Shown here: positions 27,390 to 44,057 of the stretch, piece after piece
Layout: each line of letters starts with the position of its first letter
Numbering within the stretch: position 1 is the first letter of the stretch
Assembly (NCBI GenBank): GCA_030625085.1
Contig: DAOURK010000021.1
Location: 1-44,324, forward strand
DNA length: 44,324 nucleotides
Direction of reading: 5' to 3'
From: Pseudomonadota bacterium
GTDB taxonomy: Bacteria > SZUA-182 > DTGQ01
Made by a program: the position numbers and the translations under genes
Notes under the pieces: model-generated
The model's database searches: none
The model's input: the letters and a program-made list of their open reading frames with translations, nothing else
What the model was told of the DNA's origin: nothing

Positions 27390-27980
27390 ATGACTTCATC
27401 TATTATTACACTTTATCCGGTAATTTCAATTATCGCGGAACAGAATTGCGAAAAATTATCGGGACGTGAAAAAGTTGCTTTTCTTCAAACAATGGCGCGA
27501 AAAGCCTTAGCCTATAGCGCCCAACAAAGCGGGGTTACTCTTGGCCCCCTGACCAAAGATGAAAGAGGTGCACCCCTTCCTTCCAACGGAATTTATTGGT
27601 CTCTATCTCACAAAACCCATTGTGTTGCCGCTGTAGTCAATAGAGAAAAAATTGGGATTGATGTGGAAGAGATTACCCCCCGCAACAGCCGCCAACTCTT
27701 TAATCACTTGGCATCTCCCGAGGAATGGCAGCTTTGTGCAGAACCTACGTGGGAATTTTTCTATCGCTATTGGACAGCCAAAGAAGCGGCAGTAAAGGTT
27801 ACAGGGGCCGGAATTAAAGATTTAAAAAAATGTAGGGTGACAACTATTTTGGACGATAGGCATCTTATCTTGGATTACGATCACCAGCTTTGGACAATTG
27901 AGCATTATTGGTTTCGGAACCATATTATCTCTATAACTGCCGGATCTAAATCAGTCAACTGGATCACAAAATCAATTTAG
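27390..27980 (+). CDS. 4'-phosphopantetheinyl transferase (Sfp-type)
   Basis: A 196-residue enzyme that transfers the phosphopantetheine arm from CoA to a carrier protein Ser. The metal/CoA motifs are IGIDVEEI (about 88-95) and the later WTAKEAAVK (about 128-136). SLSHK, upstream of these, fits the CoA-contact region. Length suits the single-chain Sfp/HetI-type enzymes that serve polyketide, non-ribosomal peptide or dedicated FAS carriers, rather than the small AcpS. It is 23 bases after the ORF6N gene and its stop overlaps the convergent HEAT gene by 4 bases. It suggests that a dedicated carrier protein exists elsewhere for the FAS-like enzymes upstream. Confidence 0.85.
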   Translation: MTSSIITLYPVISIIAEQNCEKLSGREKVAFLQTMARKALAYSAQQSGVTLGPLTKDERGAPLPSNGIYWSLSHKTHCVAAVVNREKIGIDVEEITPRNSRQLFNHLASPEEWQLCAEPTWEFFYRYWTAKEAAVKVTGAGIKDLKKCRVTTILDDRHLILDYDHQLWTIEHYWFRNHIISITAGSKSVNWITKSI

Positions 27981-29764
27981 ATAAGATTAATTAATACCGC
28001 TTCATGGGTTTTAGCAATGTCGTCTAAAGCAGGTTGGTCTTTCAGCTTCTTGGCTGCTTTCTGGCGAATCCATATGATAATTTCATCATTTCCGGCAATA
28101 TCTGCCAGAGCAGCTTGATCTTCCAACTTATTCACTGCTTCTATACGATCATGTACTGGAACTCCATTATTTTTAGCAATGTTTGCCAGAGCAGCTCGAT
28201 CTTTCACCCTTTTCAATGCCTCTTGGCGAATAGATGAATCTTCATCGCTTATAATAATGTCAGCCAGAGCAGCTTGATTATGCAATTTTTTTAGTGCCTC
28301 ATGGCGAATAGATAAGTCTCTATCGTTTCTGGCAATGTCTGCTAAAGTAAATTGATCCTCCAACCTTTTCACTGCTTCTCTACGAACCCAGAAACTAACT
28401 TCATCGTTTTTAGCAATATCTGCCAGAGCAGCTTGATCTTCCAGCTTATTCACTGCTTCTTTGAGAATATGTACACTTTTATCGTTTTTGGCAATATCTG
28501 CCAGAGTATCTTGATCTTGCAATTTTTTTACTGCCTCATGGCGAATAGATGAATCTTTGTCGTTTCTGGCAATGTCTGCCAAAATAGTTTGATCTTTCAT
28601 CCTTTTCACTGCTTCTTGGCGAATTCTTCTATCCTTATCATTTTTAACAATATCTGCCAAAGCAGTCTGATCTTCCAGCCTTTCCACTGCTTCTTGGCGA
28701 ACAAATACATCTTCATCGTTTTTAGCACTATCTGCCAGAGCAGATTGATTTTCCAGCTTTTTCACTGCTTCCAGGCGAGCATACGAACTCGCATCGTTTA
28801 TGGCAATGTCTGCCAAAATAGCTTGGTCTTTTATACGATACATTACGCAGCTTATTAGCTTTTCATGAACGTCCGGATCATCTTTATCATTTTTAGAGAT
28901 GTTTACCAAAATAGCTCGCAAAATGGCTTGATCTTTTATACGGGCTATTACTCCTTTACGAACATATGAACTCTCATCGTTTCTGGCAATGTCTGCCAAA
29001 ATAGTTTGATCTTCCAGCTTTTCCACTGCTTCCCGGCGAACAAATTCATCTTTATCGTTTTTAGCAATATTTGCCCGAGCAGCTTGATCCCCCAGCTTTT
29101 TTACTGCTTCTTGGCGAACATACCAACTCTCATCGTTTATGGCAATATTTGCCAAAATAGTTTGATCTTTCATCCTTTTCACTGCTTCTCGGCGTATTTT
29201 TTTATCCTTAACATTTATGGCAATGTCAGCCAACACAGCTTCGCTTTTGGCAATATTTACCAAAATAGCTGGATCATTTATACACGCTATTATTATTTTG
29301 TGAATATCTAAGCATTTATCGTTTTTAAAAATGTCTACTAAAATAGTTTGATTTTTCAATTTCTTCACTGCTTCCAGGCGAATTCTTTTATCCTTGGCAT
29401 TTTTGGCAATGTCGGCCAAAATATTTTGATCTACCAGCTTTTTCACTGCTTCCCGGCGAATGTTGAAAACAGTGTCATCCTCCATAAGTGTTTCTTCTTT
29501 AATAATTTTCACAAGCAAATCCCGGTTTTTCAACCGCTCGGCCGCCTTACACCTGACGTCATAACTCATATTGCTTCCGGCAATCTCGGTAAGAAAATTT
29601 TGGTCTTCCAGCTTTTTTACAGCGGTCTTTCTAATATCCTCCTCAGAATCGTTCCAGGCGATCCATGCGAGTTTTTTTTGGTTATCCAGTCCCTCTGCGG
29701 CACGAAGGCGAACCTTCTTATCAGAATGCTTCCAATTTGGACGAAAAAAATTTAATAGACTCAT
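27977..29764 (-). CDS. HEAT-like solenoid of about 21 26-residue repeats
   Basis: A 595-residue protein from the ATG at 29764 (AAAGG eight bases upstream); a GTG at 29773 is less likely. After a short N-terminus the whole protein is repeats with consensus DQ..LADIAKNDKDSSIR.EAVKKL and a 26-residue period. I count about 21 units, two with insertions. The Leu/Ile/Ala spacing predicts two short helices per unit, as in HEAT / PBS-lyase-type or LRV solenoids, which serve as binding scaffolds. There is no signal peptide and no catalytic domain. The repeats are very similar to each other at DNA level, so unit number may vary between strains. Partner unknown. Convergent with the phosphopantetheinyl transferase gene. 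Confidence 0.82.
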   Translation of the reverse strand: MSLLNFFRPNWKHSDKKVRLRAAEGLDNQKKLAWIAWNDSEEDIRKTAVKKLEDQNFLTEIAGSNMSYDVRCKAAERLKNRDLLVKIIKEETLMEDDTVFNIRREAVKKLVDQNILADIAKNAKDKRIRLEAVKKLKNQTILVDIFKNDKCLDIHKIIIACINDPAILVNIAKSEAVLADIAINVKDKKIRREAVKRMKDQTILANIAINDESWYVRQEAVKKLGDQAARANIAKNDKDEFVRREAVEKLEDQTILADIARNDESSYVRKGVIARIKDQAILRAILVNISKNDKDDPDVHEKLISCVMYRIKDQAILADIAINDASSYARLEAVKKLENQSALADSAKNDEDVFVRQEAVERLEDQTALADIVKNDKDRRIRQEAVKRMKDQTILADIARNDKDSSIRHEAVKKLQDQDTLADIAKNDKSVHILKEAVNKLEDQAALADIAKNDEVSFWVRREAVKRLEDQFTLADIARNDRDLSIRHEALKKLHNQAALADIIISDEDSSIRQEALKRVKDRAALANIAKNNGVPVHDRIEAVNKLEDQAALADIAGNDEIIIWIRQKAAKKLKDQPALDDIAKTHEAVLINLI

Positions 29765-30613
29765 AATCAACACCTTTCAAGCATACTATTTTATTCACTC
29801 ATATTTATTAGCTGACAGTGTTTAAATAAATCCTGAAAAAAATAAAATAATCATAACTTTTTGATTTCAAGGCAGTTCTCAATTTTTTTACTCCTAATTA
29901 CGTTGTCAGATAAATATGAGCGATTTTATTTTATATGACTATCGCCTTTTACTTGTCATAACAACCAACAAACAACTGTAAAACAAAGGGTAACATTACA
30001 TCAGAGATAGTTAAATTTGTTACCTTTTAAATTGTTTTGACTTTTATAGAAGGAGTATCTCAGGATCGTATAATAGAAATATTTAAGATCTGAAGGGCTT
30101 GAAAAGATTGGTAATTTCCTGTTGAAGGGAAAATATTTTTTTGATGATAAATCAAGATGTTATCCCCCTTCTCAGGAGGTGAACACATAGTTTTTGGATG
30201 GTTGTATGGTTTAATGTGTTTACTAAAAATATATAAGGAAACAAATAAAGGGCATTCCCGTGCGAGGGGAAGGTGGTTTGCCCTCTTATTTATAACTGCA
30301 ATTTGTGTTTGGCTTAATTCCTTTGAATTTTTTGAAAATTCACAAACATCACTACGATGACAACGTATATATCCGGTTGAGTCTATCGAACTTAAGAAAC
30401 AAATCAGGCAGACCAAAAGTAAGCTTTCAAATAAGAATAAAATTTTTGATCTATCCATCTTAACATTCCTCTATTACAGAGAAAAAAGATCCTCTCCGGC
30501 AAATACGTTGAAAATAAACTATACAAATAGCGCCTTTATCCTATGATTTTTTAGCGAAACTATTTATCCCTCATTTATTAAATATACTAATAGCGTTATG
30601 ATTAGTATGAGAT
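29765..30613. other. Mostly gene-free AT-rich region
   Basis: Only one weakly supported minus-strand frame (30060-30458) lies here. No shared repeat, tRNA or strong terminator was noticed. Confidence 0.35.
30060..30458 (-). CDS. Doubtful small exported protein
   Basis: A 132-residue frame with AGAGGAATGTTAAG before the ATG and an N-terminal hydrophobic stretch (ILFLFESLLLVCLICFLSS) that could be a signal peptide or membrane anchor. Beyond residue 40 the composition is not distinctive and matches no family I know. A shorter frame on the opposite strand (30157-30360) also contains a hydrophobic stretch but lacks a ribosome site. Could be a decayed gene. Confidence 0.28.
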   Translation of the reverse strand: MDRSKILFLFESLLLVCLICFLSSIDSTGYIRCHRSDVCEFSKNSKELSQTQIAVINKRANHLPLARECPLFVSLYIFSKHIKPYNHPKTMCSPPEKGDNILIYHQKNIFPSTGNYQSFQALQILNISIIRS

Positions 30614-30830: not shown

Positions 30831-31017
30831 AAATATACTCGCAACATAATCGTCAAATAGAAATTTTTTTTACAAAAATACAAGGGGAAATAGGATTATC
30901 TCAAGAGATAATCCTATGGCATCCGATTACATAAAGGTATTAATCCCTTCCCTTAAGATCGTAGTAGTCGAGGTAATTATATTCATAGGTAATCATTTGA
31001 GTTTCTTGTTAATGTGG

Positions 31018-31401
31018 TTATCCCTTTGCTTTTAATTTATCATTCATGATATTTTGAGCAGGAATTCCTATTATCTTCTTTATGCTGCCAAGCAATTCAT
31101 TTGCCTTCATTGACTTGGTAACGTAGTCATCCATTCCGGCATCGATACACTTTTCCCTGTCACCCTTCATTGCAAAGGCTGTTAATGCAATTATTGGAAC
31201 TCTTTCTTTTTGTTCTTGTGTTTCGATATCTCTAATCACTTTAGTTGCTTCAATACCATCTAAAATCGGCATTTGTATATCCATTAAAATCAAATCTATC
31301 GATGAATTAGATTTATATACTGAAATTGCCTCTTTACCATCATTTGATAAAACTACATTATATCCAACCTTCTCTAAAATAGTTTTAGCTACTTCTTGAT
31401 T
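31018..31401 (-). pseudogene. Receiver domain cut off from the hybrid kinase
   Basis: An open frame of 127 codons encodes most of a response-regulator receiver domain: QEVAKTILEKVGYNVV, the phospho-acceptor Asp in LILMDIQMP, the Thr in IIALTAFAM and the Lys in DYVTKSM. It overlaps the last 17 bases of the histidine kinase gene in a different frame and has no usable start: a TAA precedes it in frame, and the first candidate codon is TTG inside the domain. The first beta-strand and the acidic pair that normally opens the domain (as in VEDN) are not found in any frame at the junction. The simplest reading is a hybrid kinase whose C-terminal receiver was separated by a small deletion with frameshift. 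Confidence 0.75.
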
Positions 31402-33814
31402 TTACAACAGCATATTCTTTTAGATTTTTCGTTTCTGTTTCTATTGGTTTATATGGAATTGTAAAATAGAATGTAGTGCCATGGCTACTGACAACATTTG
31501 ATGTCACTTTAATCTCCCCGCCCAGTAACTCAACTAATTTCTTGGAAATTGTAAGCCCAAGCCCAGTGCCTCCATATTTTCTTGTATGACTTACATCTGC
31601 TTGCAGGAATGGTCTAAATATTTCTTCTTGTTTGTCTTCAGCTATTCCAATTCCAGTGTCTCTTACATAAAATTCTAATTTATTTTCATCTCTTAATCTA
31701 ACACCATATTCAATAAATCCGCTATCTGTAAATTTGACAGCGTTACTCACCAGATTATTCATTATCTGTTGCAATCTTGTAGGGTCGGCTATGATTGATT
31801 TGCTTATATTATCAGGATAATTTTCTCTTAATGTAATGTCTTTCTGCTTATGAGTTATGACTGTTTTATAATTAGAATTAACATTTTTAAATATAGACTC
31901 AAGTGATAGTGGAACTTGTTCTACCTCAATTTGCCCAGCTTCAATTTTTGAGAGGTCTAAAATATCATTAATGATTGCTAATAATAGATTTACACTCTCT
32001 TTTATGGTTTCTAAATTTTCTCTATGTTCATCTGAAAGTTCATCTTCAAGCATCAAATCAGTATATCCAAGAATAGGATTCAAAGGAGTTCTTATCTCAT
32101 GAGACATATTGGCCAAAAATGCAGATTTTAAACGGTCGGATTCTTCAGCTTTAGCTAATGCTTTTTTAAGTTCATTTTCTGCCTTACGTTTCTCTGTTAT
32201 ATCTCTAAACACCAGAACCACTCCAATATGGTCCCCTTGAGATGTTATTATAGGAGCAGCGCTAGCAGCAATTGGATATTCATTACCACCTTTGGGAATT
32301 AGGACACTATCATTGCTAAGTTCAATAATCCTTCTCTCCCGAAACACTTTCTGCACCGGGTCTTCTATTGCTTTGCGGATTTTTTCATTGATTACATTGA
32401 ATATTTCTTGTATATCTTTTCCCTTCGCCTCAGCATAGCGCCAACCTGTTAATGCTTCAGCCATAGGGTTCATCAAGGCAATTTTATTTTCCATATCAAT
32501 AGTTATTACTGCATCTCCAATACTTTCAAGGGTTGCTGCCAGACGTATTTCACTATCTCGACGTATTTTACTTTCTCGGAGTTCTTCCTCTCTTTTCATC
32601 CGCACGGTAATCTCTTGGTCACGTTTGACAATAGCCTTCTGCAAACCCTCACTCATTTTATTAAATGAATCCGCTAATATGGCTAATTCATCCTTATTCC
32701 TTAAGTTTATCTTATGGGTTAAATCACCATTTCCAATTATGTAAGTTCCTGCTATCAAAGTATTAATTGGATTTATGATTGATCTCCCTATAATAAATGA
32801 AAAAATAAGGGATAACAAAATACCAACACTGCATACGGCAAAGCTAATGATTTTAATTTCTGTTACTGTTCGTTCTGACTGAGAGACTTTTTGTTCTATA
32901 TCTTTTGTTAGGGTATTAGTAAACTCATCTATCAAGTTTCTTAATTCATCAAGAATTTTTTTTCCAGTGCCCGCCGCAAGTAAATTAGTAATATCATCCA
33001 TAGATCGTGGGGCCTTTTCATACCTTATTCTTGCATGAATCTCCGGCCTTGCAACCTCAGCCAGCCATTCTTCATATAGTTTCTTTAGATTAGATAATCT
33101 TTCAAGATTCTTCTTATCGCCTTGAAGTATTTTTTCTAATTCTTTAGTATGTTTATAAAATTTTATTTGCCCATTGTAAAAAGGCTCAAGAAACCAATCT
33201 CTTCCTGCAAGGAGAAAGCCTCTTTCTCCACACTCAGAGTCTACTATATCCTTTCCTATTTGGGTGGTTAATAAAAGATTGTCTTTTCTGCCGGATTTTT
33301 GGAAATCCTTTGACATTGTGCTTATGATTGCTCTAGTCTTATCTATAATTTTTTTGCCTTTACCCGTCCGAACCATCTCATCTATACTCTTTAGGCTAAA
33401 TTGGGCCTCGTTAATTACCCGTCGCATATTAATCTCAGGTTCCCCAGCGACTCCAATCCATTCATATTGAATGTGCTCTATTTCTTCTAGCATTTTTAAA
33501 TATTTTGGGTGATTTGATAAGTCTTTGCGTAAGTGGCTCAACGTTCCTACAAAGTTTTTAACGGCTTTTTTATAAGGCTCCAGAAACTCGTCTTTTCCTG
33601 TAATAATAAACCCTCGTTGGCCTGTCTCCATATCGACAATATGTTTAATAAGGTTTTGTGATTTGGCAACCACACACTCAAAGGTATTATGTGTATCTCT
33701 AGAGATTTTTATAATTTTTGTTAAGTTTTTCATAAGAAATAATGTAGATGGAATAAATATAAACAAAAACATACCGCATAAAATTGCGATTTTTGCTTTA
33801 ATTGAAAATCTCAT
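31385..33814 (-). CDS. Double-CHASE3 sensor histidine kinase (formerly hybrid)
   Basis: An 809-residue membrane kinase, ATG at 33814 with GAGGGAATTTGGTT upstream. Order: transmembrane helix 1 (about 8-30); an extracytoplasmic region with two CHASE3-like units, signatures DMETGQRGFIITGKDEFLEP (about 60) and DSECGERGFLLAGRDWFLEP (about 195); helix 2 (about 322-346); HAMP; coiled coil; PAS (about 425-545); HisKA with the phospho-acceptor His at about 572 (NMSHEIRTPLNP); HATPase_c with DTGIGIAEDKQEEIF and GGTGLGL. It should autophosphorylate in response to an unknown periplasmic signal. Its receiver domain lies directly downstream out of frame. It starts 26 bases after the stop of the membrane sensor gene, so the two are an operon. 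Confidence 0.9.
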   Translation of the reverse strand: MRFSIKAKIAILCGMFLFIFIPSTLFLMKNLTKIIKISRDTHNTFECVVAKSQNLIKHIVDMETGQRGFIITGKDEFLEPYKKAVKNFVGTLSHLRKDLSNHPKYLKMLEEIEHIQYEWIGVAGEPEINMRRVINEAQFSLKSIDEMVRTGKGKKIIDKTRAIISTMSKDFQKSGRKDNLLLTTQIGKDIVDSECGERGFLLAGRDWFLEPFYNGQIKFYKHTKELEKILQGDKKNLERLSNLKKLYEEWLAEVARPEIHARIRYEKAPRSMDDITNLLAAGTGKKILDELRNLIDEFTNTLTKDIEQKVSQSERTVTEIKIISFAVCSVGILLSLIFSFIIGRSIINPINTLIAGTYIIGNGDLTHKINLRNKDELAILADSFNKMSEGLQKAIVKRDQEITVRMKREEELRESKIRRDSEIRLAATLESIGDAVITIDMENKIALMNPMAEALTGWRYAEAKGKDIQEIFNVINEKIRKAIEDPVQKVFRERRIIELSNDSVLIPKGGNEYPIAASAAPIITSQGDHIGVVLVFRDITEKRKAENELKKALAKAEESDRLKSAFLANMSHEIRTPLNPILGYTDLMLEDELSDEHRENLETIKESVNLLLAIINDILDLSKIEAGQIEVEQVPLSLESIFKNVNSNYKTVITHKQKDITLRENYPDNISKSIIADPTRLQQIMNNLVSNAVKFTDSGFIEYGVRLRDENKLEFYVRDTGIGIAEDKQEEIFRPFLQADVSHTRKYGGTGLGLTISKKLVELLGGEIKVTSNVVSSHGTTFYFTIPYKPIETETKNLKEYAVVKSRSS

Positions 33815-33840
33815 AACCAAATTCCCTCTGGCATAGTTTC

Positions 33841-34689
33841 TTACAGCCTTGTTTTCTTTTCTCTTCTCTTTTTCATATATTCCTGAATTTCAAAATCAAA
33901 TACGTCATCTACGATGAGAACAGATTTCCAAAAAGAAAGCTTTTTTTCCTTTAGCTCATCTGCTAAGGTATTACACTCTTTCATAAGTTCCACAGAATGC
34001 TGCCACAAATCCTCAAATTCCTTAATATAAGGTTTTTCAGTAGCTGTTATATCAAGCTTCTTATACATTTCCCAATATTTATTCACATCTTCTAATTGTA
34101 AGGGAAATTCTCTCCTGGCATCATCAGAGTGGCTATAAAGATAAAAATTAGTTGCGTTGATAGCTTCCCAGATACTTACTTCTATTTCACGCACAAATTT
34201 TTCCTTCTCAATTAGATCAGGAATGCCTTCTATAAAAGTGGGCTGAATTTTGTAGTCAATTATATCATCAGCTTCATGAACAGAATCCCACGCTTTTTTT
34301 GTTATATCTATCATATTTTGACGCAATTTTATAAGTCCCTCAGCCTCAGTTATACTGTCCTTCCAGAGCTTCTCGAGCTTGACCGCTATCCTTTTCTCTT
34401 CTTCGGTATCAATCAAGGCCTTGTATTTAGTCATAAACTTGTCAATCTCCCTGACCTCCTTTTGGTACTGTTTCAAACTAACCGCCGATGGATCAGTCGT
34501 ATAATAAAATATAGCGTTGGCAGCTTCCCAAAAGCTAACCTCTATTTCCCTCACTGTTGGCACTTTGTTCCATGCGACCTCTAATATTTTGTCTACCTTC
34601 TGCCTTTCTTTGCTAATAAATTGATAACCCAGAATTCCGCCGAAAACAATCACAGCCAACAAAATTAGTATAATTACGTTTTTTTTCAC
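33841..34689 (-). CDS. Membrane-anchored helical sensor protein with internal duplication
   Basis: A 282-residue protein from the GTG at 34689, chosen because AAAGGAAGGAAC lies just upstream. An upstream TTG frame has no ribosome site. One N-terminal transmembrane helix (about 3-24) is followed by an extracytoplasmic, all-helical region. Two related halves begin VREIEVSFWEAANAIFYY (about 46) and VREIEVSIWEAINATNFYLY (about 166). The pattern resembles four-helix-bundle ligand sensors of chemoreceptors and CHASE3 regions. There is no cytoplasmic output domain. It lies immediately upstream of the histidine kinase, whose own sensor region is also duplicated, so it probably acts as an accessory ligand-binding subunit of that kinase (inference). 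Family not recognised by name. Confidence 0.7.
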   Translation of the reverse strand: MKKNVIILILLAVIVFGGILGYQFISKERQKVDKILEVAWNKVPTVREIEVSFWEAANAIFYYTTDPSAVSLKQYQKEVREIDKFMTKYKALIDTEEEKRIAVKLEKLWKDSITEAEGLIKLRQNMIDITKKAWDSVHEADDIIDYKIQPTFIEGIPDLIEKEKFVREIEVSIWEAINATNFYLYSHSDDARREFPLQLEDVNKYWEMYKKLDITATEKPYIKEFEDLWQHSVELMKECNTLADELKEKKLSFWKSVLIVDDVFDFEIQEYMKKRREKKTRL

Positions 34690-34760
34690 CTTTTTGTTCC
34701 TTCCTTTCAATCTTTTGTTCTGTTGCAACAAAATGACGATTGATTTCAAAAACTTATTTG

Positions 34761-35670: not shown

Positions 35671-37275
35671 ATGAATGACAATGATAAAAATGATAAATTT
35701 GATATTCTTATTGTGGATGACGTTCCGGTAAACTTGGCATTACTGGCAAAATTATTGGAAGACCTTGACTTAAACGTAGTAAAGGCAAATTCAGGCCAAA
35801 AAGCTTTGGAGTTAATGGAGGAATATGACTTTGCTCTTGTCCTGCTTGATGTTCAGATGCCTGGAATGGATGGTTTTGAGACATCCGAACGTATGAAAAG
35901 CAATGAAAAAACCAAACATGTCCCCATTATTTTTGTAACTGCCGCAAATGAAGAGAAATATATATTCAGAGGTTATGAAACAGGTGCTGTTGATTTCCTT
36001 TTTAAACCTGTGAATAAGTACATATTAAGGAGTAAGGTCTCTATCTTCCTTGACCTGTACAAACAGAAAAAGCAGTTAAAAGATCTTTCAATCCAGGATG
36101 GGCTCACCGGATTATACAATCACCGTCAAATGGATAAGATACTAAAAAAGGAGTTCAGCCGTGCAAATAGATATGGAACCGACCTTTCATGTTTGCTGAT
36201 CGACCTGGATTTCTTTAAAGTTGTCAACGACACATTCGGCCATGCATTTGGTGATTTTGTTCTAAAAGGGTTTGCCGATATTTTGAATGCCCATACCAGA
36301 GAATCAGATTATACCTTTCGATACGGCGGAGAGGAATTCATGATTCTTCTGCCCCAAACCGACATTGTGGGTGCAGAAATTGTAGCAGAAAAACTCTGCA
36401 ATATTTGTGAAGATAATGTCTATACCGATGCTTCCAATTCAACTATAGTAACATTAAGCATTGGTGGTTCTTCGATAGTTCATAACCGGCCCGGGCAACC
36501 CGAGACTCTGTTAGCCTATGCCGACAAGGCTGTTTACCGTGCCAAGGCAGAAGGGAGAAATCGTGTAAAGATCTATATTGAAGACACTTCAAGTAATAAA
36601 CCAGGTGATGCCAAAGTTGATAAAGATATAAACTACCTCAAGGAACATCTTTCATCTGTATTGGAGAAAACAAAAAAATCGTATATGTCATCACTTCAAC
36701 TCCTTGTTCAGGATATGACTGATACAGAGTTTCAAAGTTATAATCAGCGAGTTCTATTATACATGGATTTAATCGGAGAAAAACTACGACTTCCCCAACC
36801 TATTATTGAAACTTTTAAAAGGTCGGCATCTCTTCATAATTGTTTTACGATTTTATTGGGCAAAGATCTCATATCCCGGAAAGGCTCACTAACTGAAGAA
36901 GAAAAAGCTGACCTCGAAGCCCATCCATATATGCTTACTGAGCTGACTTTACTCTTTGATTTTTTTTCTGATGAAAGATCAATTCTTCAATATCACCATG
37001 AAAATTTTGACGGGTCCGGCTTTCCTGAAGGTCTGGAAGGAGATCAGATTCCTCTTGGAGCCAGAATATTCTCGATCGCAGAAGCCATCGTCGAAATGAC
37101 AACTAGCCTGCCGGACAAGCAAGCCCTATCATTGGAAAATGTTATCAAAGAGCTTTCAGATAATATGGGAACCCGGTTTGACCCAATGTTGGTTTCCTCT
37201 TTTCGGGATATAATAAAAGAACAGAACTCACTTATTGAAATTCGGAAAATAAAAAAAATATATAATAAGAGATAA
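35671..37275 (+). CDS. REC-GGDEF response regulator with degenerate HD-GYP tail
   Basis: A 534-residue cytoplasmic protein; GGGAG lies seven bases before the ATG. The receiver domain (about 10-128) has DD at the start (LIVDDVPV) and acceptor Asp about 59 (LLDVQMPG). The GGDEF domain (about 140-305) has an intact active site GGEEF (about 218-222) and an upstream RxxD inhibitory site (RESD), so it is probably an active, product-inhibited diguanylate cyclase. Residues about 330-530 resemble HD-GYP: HHENFDGSGFP and IPLGARIF are kept. The HD signature LHDIGK is replaced by LHNCFT, and DxxD by ExxV, so c-di-GMP hydrolysis is unlikely. It is in an operon with the HDOD gene 2 bases downstream. The phosphodonor could be the neighbouring kinase. 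Confidence 0.9.
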   Translation: MNDNDKNDKFDILIVDDVPVNLALLAKLLEDLDLNVVKANSGQKALELMEEYDFALVLLDVQMPGMDGFETSERMKSNEKTKHVPIIFVTAANEEKYIFRGYETGAVDFLFKPVNKYILRSKVSIFLDLYKQKKQLKDLSIQDGLTGLYNHRQMDKILKKEFSRANRYGTDLSCLLIDLDFFKVVNDTFGHAFGDFVLKGFADILNAHTRESDYTFRYGGEEFMILLPQTDIVGAEIVAEKLCNICEDNVYTDASNSTIVTLSIGGSSIVHNRPGQPETLLAYADKAVYRAKAEGRNRVKIYIEDTSSNKPGDAKVDKDINYLKEHLSSVLEKTKKSYMSSLQLLVQDMTDTEFQSYNQRVLLYMDLIGEKLRLPQPIIETFKRSASLHNCFTILLGKDLISRKGSLTEEEKADLEAHPYMLTELTLLFDFFSDERSILQYHHENFDGSGFPEGLEGDQIPLGARIFSIAEAIVEMTTSLPDKQALSLENVIKELSDNMGTRFDPMLVSSFRDIIKEQNSLIEIRKIKKIYNKR

Positions 37276-37277
37276 AT

Positions 37278-38159
37278 ATGTCTTCTCAAAAAATATCGAT
37301 CCTTACTTCAAAAATTGACTCATTTCCCGTTCTTCCGACAGTAGTAGGACGTGTTATGGAAATTACAGCTGATCCTGACAGTGCCCCCAAGGATCTTATA
37401 AATGTAATTAGTCCGGATCAATCACTTACTACTACAATACTCAAAATGGCTAACTCTGCATATTTCGGGTTGACAAGGGAAGTAAGTTCACTTCAACAGG
37501 CATTGACTATACTAGGGTTTACGGAAATTCGAAATCTTGTTTTGGCAAAAGCAGTCTTCAACAGTTTTAAAAGTCTTAAAAAAGGCAGCAAATTCGATAT
37601 TCGGAAATTTTGGGAGCATTCATTTATTTGCGGTATTGCTGCAAAGATTATTGCAACTGAATTAAAACGTCCCGGTAATGAATTTTTTGTTGCAGGCCTT
37701 ATACACGATATCGGAAAGCTTTTAATATTCATGGCAATGCCTGATGATTTCTTCAAGATAATTGAAGCATCAGAGCCTTTGATTTCTAATACTTACAAAG
37801 CAGAAAAAGATATCCTTGGTGTAACACATGATGAAATCGGCATGGCGCTTGTAAAAAAATGGATGTTTCCTGAAAACCTCATAACTGCAGTGGGTTTTCA
37901 CCATAGACCTGCTGAAGCAGCAAAACAGTCTCTTTTTTCTTTTGTAGTATATGTGGCAGACCTGCTTGCACACTTAAACGAATTTGAAAATAGTGAAGAT
38001 AAAGAGCCCTTATTAAAAGAAAAGGACATATACCCAGAAATTATAAAACTTTCACAATCACAAAATATTGAATGGAATGAATCCGACTTAAAAAGGTTTC
38101 AAGACGAACTTGCCAAGAAAAAAGAAGAAGAGGCAGGAGCCCTAAGCCTGTTTCTATAG
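37278..38159 (+). CDS. HDOD domain signalling protein
   Basis: A 293-residue protein. The HDOD domain covers about residues 10-215, with LPTVVGRVMEITADPDSA, the SPDQSLTTTILKMANSAYFG block, and a residual HD-like site (FVAGLIHDIGKLL, about 133-145). HDOD proteins are signalling modules, usually without proven enzymatic activity, linked to motility, virulence or c-di-GMP networks. The C-terminus is a charged helix. It is transcribed with the upstream REC-GGDEF gene (2-base gap). The right-hand R4 repeat follows 20 bases after its stop. Confidence 0.88.
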   Translation: MSSQKISILTSKIDSFPVLPTVVGRVMEITADPDSAPKDLINVISPDQSLTTTILKMANSAYFGLTREVSSLQQALTILGFTEIRNLVLAKAVFNSFKSLKKGSKFDIRKFWEHSFICGIAAKIIATELKRPGNEFFVAGLIHDIGKLLIFMAMPDDFFKIIEASEPLISNTYKAEKDILGVTHDEIGMALVKKWMFPENLITAVGFHHRPAEAAKQSLFSFVVYVADLLAHLNEFENSEDKEPLLKEKDIYPEIIKLSQSQNIEWNESDLKRFQDELAKKKEEEAGALSLFL

Positions 38160-42169: not shown

Positions 42170-43435
42170 CTAAAGGTGCAGACGAGACTGCACCAGGCTT
42201 TTAAACTTTTGTGCTTGATCGGACTCAGGCTTAATATTCAAAGCCTGTTCACAATCTACCAGGGCTTGCGGATAGTTACCCAGACAAAAATAAATCTGTG
42301 CACGGCTATAAAGTGGGTCGTACTGACAAGGATTCAATTCGAGACATCTATTAAAATCCTCCAAAGCCTGAGGGTAATTCTGTAATATATAGTGAACCAC
42401 CCCTCGATAATAATAAGCTTTAAGGTTCTCCTGATCAAGCTCCAGGGCCGCTGAAAAATCCTCTAGCGCTTGACTATAATTAGATTCAGCAACATAAGCC
42501 ATACCACGATGAAGGTGAATGATTGATTGAATATATTTTTGCGGTTCAAGATTTAAGATGGAAGTATATATATCTACAGCCATTTTGAACCGGTTTGAAT
42601 TATGCGCATAAAGCGCTTCCAGCAACAGATCATCAATGTTATTGATAAATTTCTTCCCTATTTCTTTTTTCTTCTTTATTTCCTTCTCCTGAATATGCTT
42701 TCTTCCTGATAACTCCCCCTCCATTATTTCAGAAGACATTAATGCGGCCGTATCGGCCTGAATTTTTTCAAAAAAGTTTTTTCTCCGCTTTTTCAACTGT
42801 GCTCGTAATTGTTTTTGATAATCTCGAATTTCCTGAAAGATGATATCTGAAAGAGTCAAATTAGCATTTAATGCCGCTAGTTTTCGTTTCAGGTGTTCAT
42901 CAAAAGGAGTAAACTCGACCTTATAAACCAACTCGTGTTCAACCTCCGCCCAGGCGTCCTGCAGTAAAGTCCGAAGCTGCAACTCATAAACCAGGTCGGA
43001 TCTAAGCTGAAATTGGGATAAGATCTCAGAGGGTATTTTAATAAGAAAATGAGTTGATTCATATCCGAATTCTTTGAAGGAATAATGAGAACCCTTACGT
43101 TCTATCTCGACTACCTGCAACTTCTCTCTGATGAGAGCTTCTACATTTTGAAGATCTTCCAAGAAGGGCGAAACAATCCGCATACCAAGTATATCAGTAA
43201 TATTGAATGCTTGATCATGTGTTTTAGAATACTGTAAATTTCTCAATATTTTATTGTAATAACTTTCGAAGGACTTGACCCTGACCTTTATTGTCGGATG
43301 AATAGAGATTCGAGTCATAATCATTTTCATTTTTTGTTGAAGCTCATTCAGTATCTTTTCATACTCAGGTCTTTGAGCCTCATATTGCTCTTCCAAAGGC
43401 TTGCGATTTGGAATGGTTATGTTTTTAGGATTCAT
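42170..43435 (-). CDS. RelA/SpoT-type nucleotide synthetase fused to TPRs
   Basis: A 421-residue cytoplasmic protein; ATG at 43435 with GGGGACGCATTTG upstream. Residues about 40-190 form a RelA_SpoT synthetase domain: IKVRVKSFESYYNKI (substrate loop), ITDILGMRIV, FGYESTHFLI and YELQLRTLLQDAWAEVEHEL with the expected acidic and basic residues. There is no HD hydrolase, TGS or ACT domain. A charged coiled coil follows (about 195-255), then four or more TPR units (about 260-415; YYYRGVVHYILQNYPQALED and similar). It would make (p)ppGpp or a related pyrophosphorylated product, with the TPRs as sensor or partner-binding part. Some small synthetases are toxins, so a growth-arrest role is also possible. 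No obvious antitoxin neighbour is seen. Confidence 0.85.
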   Translation of the reverse strand: MNPKNITIPNRKPLEEQYEAQRPEYEKILNELQQKMKMIMTRISIHPTIKVRVKSFESYYNKILRNLQYSKTHDQAFNITDILGMRIVSPFLEDLQNVEALIREKLQVVEIERKGSHYSFKEFGYESTHFLIKIPSEILSQFQLRSDLVYELQLRTLLQDAWAEVEHELVYKVEFTPFDEHLKRKLAALNANLTLSDIIFQEIRDYQKQLRAQLKKRRKNFFEKIQADTAALMSSEIMEGELSGRKHIQEKEIKKKKEIGKKFINNIDDLLLEALYAHNSNRFKMAVDIYTSILNLEPQKYIQSIIHLHRGMAYVAESNYSQALEDFSAALELDQENLKAYYYRGVVHYILQNYPQALEDFNRCLELNPCQYDPLYSRAQIYFCLGNYPQALVDCEQALNIKPESDQAQKFKSLVQSRLHL

Positions 43436-44057
43436 CAAATGCGTCCCCAGTCATACAAGTTTTCAATATCATAATAAATTCCGCAAAAATCATGATCCAA
43501 AAACGAATATTCCTTTTATTTCTTATAGTAACACCAGCATTTAAATATATCAATTGGTATGATTACAAAATTCGGTTGGCACAATACTTTCTCGGGATAA
43601 AATTTCGTACATTCAACTCGCCATAGAGGCAAATAACCAATCAATCGGCCAGCAGCAATAAATCAGTCTCTTTGAGAAGTTGGGCGTATAACCTTTCCTT
43701 TCAGTCAATGATTAAATGGCGCCTTCAGCATATGAAAGCACACGCATTGCATACTTTTTTCCGTTAGGCAGCTTCTAATTTAGCGATTTTATGTAGCGCA
43801 AGGGCTTTAGCCCTAAGTCACAGTAAATCGTTAAAGGTTGAAGTCGGACAAAATTAGATTGCTGGGGAAAAGGATTTATCTATGGTTGAATTTATGAAAT
43901 TTTTGACTATTGGTAAAAATAGGGAGTATTATATCAGTAAATAGCACATGAACGAAAATTAGCCAAAATCGTCATTTCAAGTGGAGCGAGAAATCTTATA
44001 CCAGTGAAAATTATGCCTTCAAAGAACTCATAAACTTTATCAAGGGAGGATGCCAAT
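43436..44057. other. Gene-free region with R1 and R2-core repeats
   Basis: It contains an R1 copy (43793-43814) and an R2-core half (43972-44003, GTCATTTCAAGTGGAGCGAG then AAATCTTATA). A minus-strand stretch at about 43620-43715 is open (TERKGYTPNFSKRL...) but lacks a start and a recognisable family, so it may be a remnant. Confidence 0.4.
43793..43814. repeat. R1 repeat, short copy
   Basis: GTAGCGCAAGGGCTTTAGCCCT: the AGGGCTTTAGCCCT palindrome with the usual GTAGCGC flank. Confidence 0.7.

What the first reader, a model, noticed from the sequence alone, without database searches (positions are those of the whole stretch)
31018..33814. Hybrid histidine kinase severed from its receiver by a frameshift and loss of the acidic pocket
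The kinase stops at 31385. The receiver continues in another frame from about 31401 with intact Asp, Thr and Lys, but the first strand and acidic pair are missing from all frames. A +1 shift would fuse the two yet still lack that pocket. The phosphorelay may now end at His, or pass to the nearby REC-GGDEF protein.
Basis: seen in the sequence. Interest (0 to 1): 0.55.

Follow-up and report, generated by a model that had tools for sequence, protein, structure and literature searches.

The report
Kinase cut off from its receiver
A bacterial sensor protein that once carried its own signal-receiving domain has lost a short piece of DNA at the joint, so the sensor now ends early and the receiving domain is left as an unusable, probably recent, remnant; this is an ordinary kind of gene decay.

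Summary
The minus-strand kinase (33814-31385; two CHASE3 stretches, HAMP, PAS, HisKA, HATPase) has intact catalytic boxes and stops at 31385. A receiver follows in another frame from 31401 with Asp, Thr and Lys in place. Its acidic metal-binding pair is in none of the three frames, whereas all 82 aligned receivers from relatives have it. A one-base shift would join the two, but without the pair. All 82 relatives have five residues between beta1 and the alpha1 Asn, so the smallest fitting lesion is a net loss of 14 nt; linker lengths allow about 90 nt, and a two-receiver ancestor some 450 nt. Whether the first strand also went is unsure. The remnant has no start codon before its middle, yet no stop in 126 codons, so the lesion looks recent or is an assembly fault; reads were not available. 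Other receivers in this genome are also broken (e.g. contig C46), which fits ordinary decay in a genome with 135 receiver matches. The kinase should now act, if at all, as a plain kinase signalling to another receiver. A link to the nearby REC-GGDEF protein is untested, and no relative in the phylum supports it.

The parts
31385..33814 (-). Sensor histidine kinase, 809 aa from ATG 33814 (TTG at 33820 also possible): N-terminal hydrophobic segment, two CHASE3 stretches, second hydrophobic segment, HAMP, PAS, HisKA, HATPase_c; all catalytic boxes intact
   Evidence: Pfam; boxes SHEIRTP, NNLVSNAVKFT, DTGIGI, IFRPF, GGTGLGL and two hydrophobic segments
31385..31410 (-). Junction: kinase frame ends ...AVVKSRSS-stop; the receiver frame begins just after a stop with NQEV; no acidic pair in any frame
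   Evidence: three-frame translation; sequence
31018..31401 (-). Receiver remnant, +1 relative to the kinase frame, starting at the alpha1 Asn column; Asp, Thr and Lys kept, the usual Pro after Lys replaced by Ser; first in-frame start codon is TTG at 31293, inside the domain
   Evidence: Pfam Response_reg positions 12-110 of 111; alignment with 82 receivers; ORF list
30891..30918 (-). Stem-loop after the remnant (12 pairs, 4-base loop) with a weak T-rich tail; possible end of the transcript (approximate coordinates)
   Evidence: fold (z-score -1.79 for the 101-nt stretch); not found by the terminator scan
33841..34749 (-). Upstream gene, probably same operon: four-helix-bundle sensor-like protein without output domain, 20 nt before the kinase ORF
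   Evidence: Pfam 4HB_MCP_1; spacing
35671..37275 (+).
   Evidence: Pfam; relatives search

Best explanation
A former hybrid histidine kinase (sensor, kinase and at least one C-terminal receiver in one chain) suffered a frame-changing deletion at the kinase-receiver joint. The smallest lesion that fits is a net loss of 14 nt that took the five residues holding the acidic, Mg-binding pair. Larger deletions, up to removal of a first receiver, also fit. Shown from sequence: the split, the missing pair, the intact kinase boxes, and the absence of a usable start for the remnant. Inferred: the remnant makes no working receiver; the kinase ends 20 residues after its ATPase domain and behaves as an ordinary, non-hybrid kinase that can autophosphorylate on His and can only pass phosphate to some separate receiver; the event is recent, an early step of gene decay.
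For: Relatives carry kinase and receiver in one open frame with E-D or D-D after beta1: 82 of 82 aligned receivers have the pair and all 82 have exactly five residues between beta1 and the alpha1 Asn column. The window has 18 residues between the ATPase anchor and that Asn; the 47 measured linkers in relatives give about 27 to 48, so residues are missing even against the shortest, L060. L060 is, with L027, the kinase's nearest kin in the quick tree (SH-aLRT 95). The remnant keeps coding base composition by codon position (0.42/0.29/0.26 against 0.45/0.32/0.27 in the kinase) and is open for 126 codons, while the other two frames of the same stretch hold 17 and 14 stops. Neutral drift would give about 2.2 stops per 0.1 substitutions per site, hence recent. 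No second copy of the junction exists in the genome.
Against: No close ortholog was found (best about 40-50% identity), so the intact ancestor is inferred from distant kin. The kinase groups with single-receiver hybrids, but the remnant is nearest to second receivers of double-receiver hybrids (L056, 122 bits; unsupported in the tree), so the ancestral layout and deletion size are open. The tail YAVV scores worse than any of 79 receiver beta1 strands. Read support is unknown.
Confidence: 0.74

Rival explanations
1. Assembly or consensus fault: the cells carry an intact hybrid kinase and the missing bases were lost in a draft assembly or by mixing strains.
For: The genome is a draft of 247 contigs; the remnant shows no stop or other damage; another receiver, on contig C46, is split by a frame switch with its acidic pocket in the neighbouring frame, a pattern that consensus errors can give.
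Against: At least 14 bases must be missing, not one base in a homopolymer (the junction holds only four A in a row); the spot lies mid-contig; no repeat long enough to collapse an assembly was found around it (the longest is 28 nt at 71%); the Pro after the catalytic Lys is already changed (P in 77 of 82, S in 4).
Confidence: 0.17
2. A selected change: loss of the receiver turned a hybrid kinase into a plain kinase that now drives a separate receiver, possibly the nearby REC-GGDEF protein.
For: The kinase is complete and ends where non-hybrid kinases end (L004 and L005 stop a few residues after the ATPase domain); the neighbour REC-GGDEF keeps an intact receiver; receiver loss occurs elsewhere in the family (L018/L061, first receiver removed in frame by my reading).
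Against: No close relative with the same truncation was found, so there is no sign of maintenance; the kinase is not co-conserved with the REC-GGDEF gene in 8 other genomes of the phylum; the remnant looks recent.
Confidence: 0.07
3. Programmed or leaky +1 frameshifting makes a minor full-length kinase plus pseudo-receiver that lacks the acidic pair.
For: The remnant frame is open right up to the junction and only +1 away.
Against: No known shift signal by eye (no prfB-type stop context or spaced Shine-Dalgarno; these motifs are recalled); the product would still lack the pair; none of the relatives read shows such a shift.
Confidence: 0.02

Closest known systems
Hybrid histidine kinases (HisKA-HATPase-REC; e.g. 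the BarA/TorS/LuxQ models hit, all far below their cut-offs)
   Same: Kinase core and receiver sequence are of this type; relatives have both in one frame
   Different: Here the receiver is in another frame and lacks the acidic pair
Pseudo-receiver domains (passages of PMC12632262 read)
   Same: Lack of the metal-binding acidic pair
   Different: Pseudo-receivers are expressed folded domains; this remnant has no start before its middle and lies out of frame, and it keeps D, T and K
Yersinia pestis rcsD frameshift (PMC10191623, abstract and section list read)
   Same: A frameshift splits a phosphorelay gene
   Different: There a small separate HPt protein and full-length RcsD are made (abstract); here the second part has no start before its middle and has lost residues

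Membership tests
Functional hybrid histidine kinase | HisKA and HATPase domains with intact boxes | tested here: met
Functional hybrid histidine kinase | Receiver in the same reading frame | tested here: not met
Functional hybrid histidine kinase | Receiver with acidic pair, Asp, Thr/Ser, Lys | tested here: not met
   Asp, Thr, Lys present; acidic pair absent in all frames, present in 82 of 82 relatives
Plain (non-hybrid) sensor histidine kinase | Complete kinase that ends soon after HATPase_c | tested here: met
   HATPase_c ends at residue 791 of 811
Pseudo-receiver | Expressed receiver fold lacking catalytic residues | tested here: inconclusive
   No in-frame start before TTG 31293, so expression of the domain is not expected; expression itself was not measured

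The most novel reading that the evidence does not exclude
A natural, recent conversion of a hybrid kinase into a plain kinase by deletion at the joint, now wired to a separate receiver (perhaps the divergent REC-GGDEF protein), so that a phosphorelay became a direct route to cyclic-di-GMP control.
Probability: 0.05. Interest if true: 0.45.

Novelty: new member of a known kind. Interest (0 to 1): 0.14.

Why it matters
It is a clear snapshot of how a hybrid kinase loses its receiver, in a genome rich in such proteins. Unless strain data show that the truncated kinase is kept and rewired, it is ordinary gene decay or a draft-assembly fault, and annotators should not count it as a working hybrid kinase or phosphorelay.

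Tried and rejected
Close orthologs were sought in 60, then 386 relatives, 9 genomes of the phylum and genome contigs: none closer than about 40-50%. A search of the phylum of G087 held one genome and gave nothing at the set threshold. Plasmids gave only distant kinases and receivers. Rfam: no match in the window. A second genomic copy that could explain the junction: none. An internal start for the remnant: the first is TTG 31293, after about 36 codons, so half a domain. Direct repeats that would explain the deletion: none convincing. Deletion size from the ancestral layout (one or two receivers): kinase tree and receiver tree disagree and the latter is unsupported. A structure prediction was not run because it would not tell whether the out-of-frame remnant is made. 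Paper searches: (the last, 'domain loss' with 'hybrid histidine kinase' and 'evolution', found 0 papers); no claim about absence from print is made.

Rows dropped: receivers with under 12 residues upstream, and duplicates (91 hits to 82); kinase rows under 120 bits and identical segments; three receivers without a letter at every beta1 column (82 to 79); only ORFs of 300 codons or more from the loci then held were used, without the window's own loci L001, L044 and L059. Linker lengths were taken by a motif search that caught 47 distinct segments.

Full report
What is there. On the minus strand a gene of 811 codons (TTG 33820; ATG 33814 has the better-placed GAGGG ribosome site, read by eye) runs to a stop at 31385. 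Pfam finds CHASE3 (two stretches), HAMP, PAS, HisKA (565-629) and HATPase_c (679-791). All five kinase boxes read as active, and there are hydrophobic stretches at the N-terminus and near residue 325. Behind it, in the frame shifted by +1, lies a receiver: Pfam Response_reg, E 7e-23, profile positions 12-110 of 111. The receiver frame is closed by a stop directly before its first residues NQEV, and its first possible start is TTG 31293, inside the domain.

What is missing. I aligned 82 distinct receivers from related proteins (91 hits, duplicates and incomplete ones dropped). The second residue of the acidic pair is Asp in 82 of 82 and the first is Glu or Asp in 82 of 82; the phosphorylated Asp is 82 of 82, Thr 76 of 82, Lys 80 of 82. 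The window has the Asp, Thr and Lys, but the acidic pair is found in none of the three frames. All 82 have five residues between the last beta1 residue and the alpha1 Asn column. If the kinase tail KEYAVV is beta1, exactly these five are gone and the net loss is 14 nt. The reading of YAVV as beta1 is weak: it is the best four-residue word of the 27 in the tail, but scores -3.26 against -2.00 to 11.44 in 79 receivers. Measured from the ATPase end, the window has 18 residues to the Asn, relatives about 27 to 48 (47 linkers), so a loss of about 27 to 90 nt fits as well or better.

Ancestral form. Relatives are of two kinds: kinase with one receiver, and kinase with two. In a quick tree of 59 kinase cores (36 single, 18 double, 4 without receiver, the window) the window groups with two single-receiver hybrids, L060 and L027 (SH-aLRT 95). 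The remnant itself is most like second receivers of double hybrids (L056 122 bits, L020 113, L003/L046 112), but the receiver tree has too few columns to support this. A loss of a whole first receiver plus the start of the second, some 450 nt, is thus not excluded. In the same family, G002 contig C443 (L018/L061) shows what reads like a clean in-frame removal of the first receiver (my reading).

Age and reality. The remnant has the codon-position base composition of the kinase and no stop in 126 codons. 65 of 1134 single substitutions would make one, so about 2.2 stops are expected per 0.1 neutral substitutions per site. The lesion is recent or an artefact. Against an artefact: at least 14 bases are involved, mid-contig, without a collapsible repeat, and Lys is followed by Ser instead of Pro (Pro 77 of 82, Ser 4). 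For it: this is a 247-contig draft and reads are not available. In the whole genome 8 of 135 Response_reg matches, the window's among them, begin at profile position 7 or later. I read the 7 others by eye: C46 is split by a frame switch with its acidic pocket in the neighbouring frame, C21 has three stops, C152 lacks its start, C86 lies at a contig start, and C83, C24 and C110 are open through a start without a normal acidic pair, so look like natural pseudo-receivers. Broken receivers are therefore not unique here.

Function. Shown: kinase complete, receiver not encoded in frame and without its acidic pair. From the literature: the acidic pair binds the metal ion that coordinates the phosphoryl group (PMC12632262, passages). 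Inferred: the kinase now acts as a plain kinase or is on its way out. The neighbours (4HB sensor gene 33841-34749, 20 nt upstream; divergent REC-GGDEF-HD gene 35671-37275) have no convincing counterparts in the 8 other genomes of the phylum: none for the kinase at E 1e-66, none for the 4HB gene at 1e-5, and for the REC-GGDEF gene one match in one genome at 36% identity that covers residues 157-518 only. A hand-over to that protein cannot be tested by synteny.

Verdict. Interest is low unless strain data show that the truncated kinase is maintained.

Noticed in passing
G000:C46:5429-5728 (L093): Another receiver of the same genome is split by a frame switch right after its acidic pocket (IDDDSK in one frame, QAQEILKTYL in another).
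   Followed up: partly
L018 / L061 (G002 contig C443): A same-family kinase in which the first of two receivers seems to have been deleted in frame between its beta1 and the inter-receiver linker.
   Followed up: partly
window 35671-37275 (+): REC-GGDEF protein with a degenerate HD-GYP-like end (LHN instead of HD, GSGFP instead of GYP; read by eye), followed by an HDOD protein (37278-38159).
   Followed up: no
window 33841-34749 (-): Four-helix-bundle sensor with two similar halves (by eye) and no output domain, directly upstream of the kinase; no match in the 8 other genomes of the phylum.
   Followed up: partly
window 27977-29773 (-): 598-aa protein made almost wholly of short HEAT-like repeats (ILADIAKND...VRxEAVKKLEDQ).
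   Followed up: no
window 42170-43438 (-): RelA/SpoT synthetase domain fused to TPR repeats.
   Followed up: no
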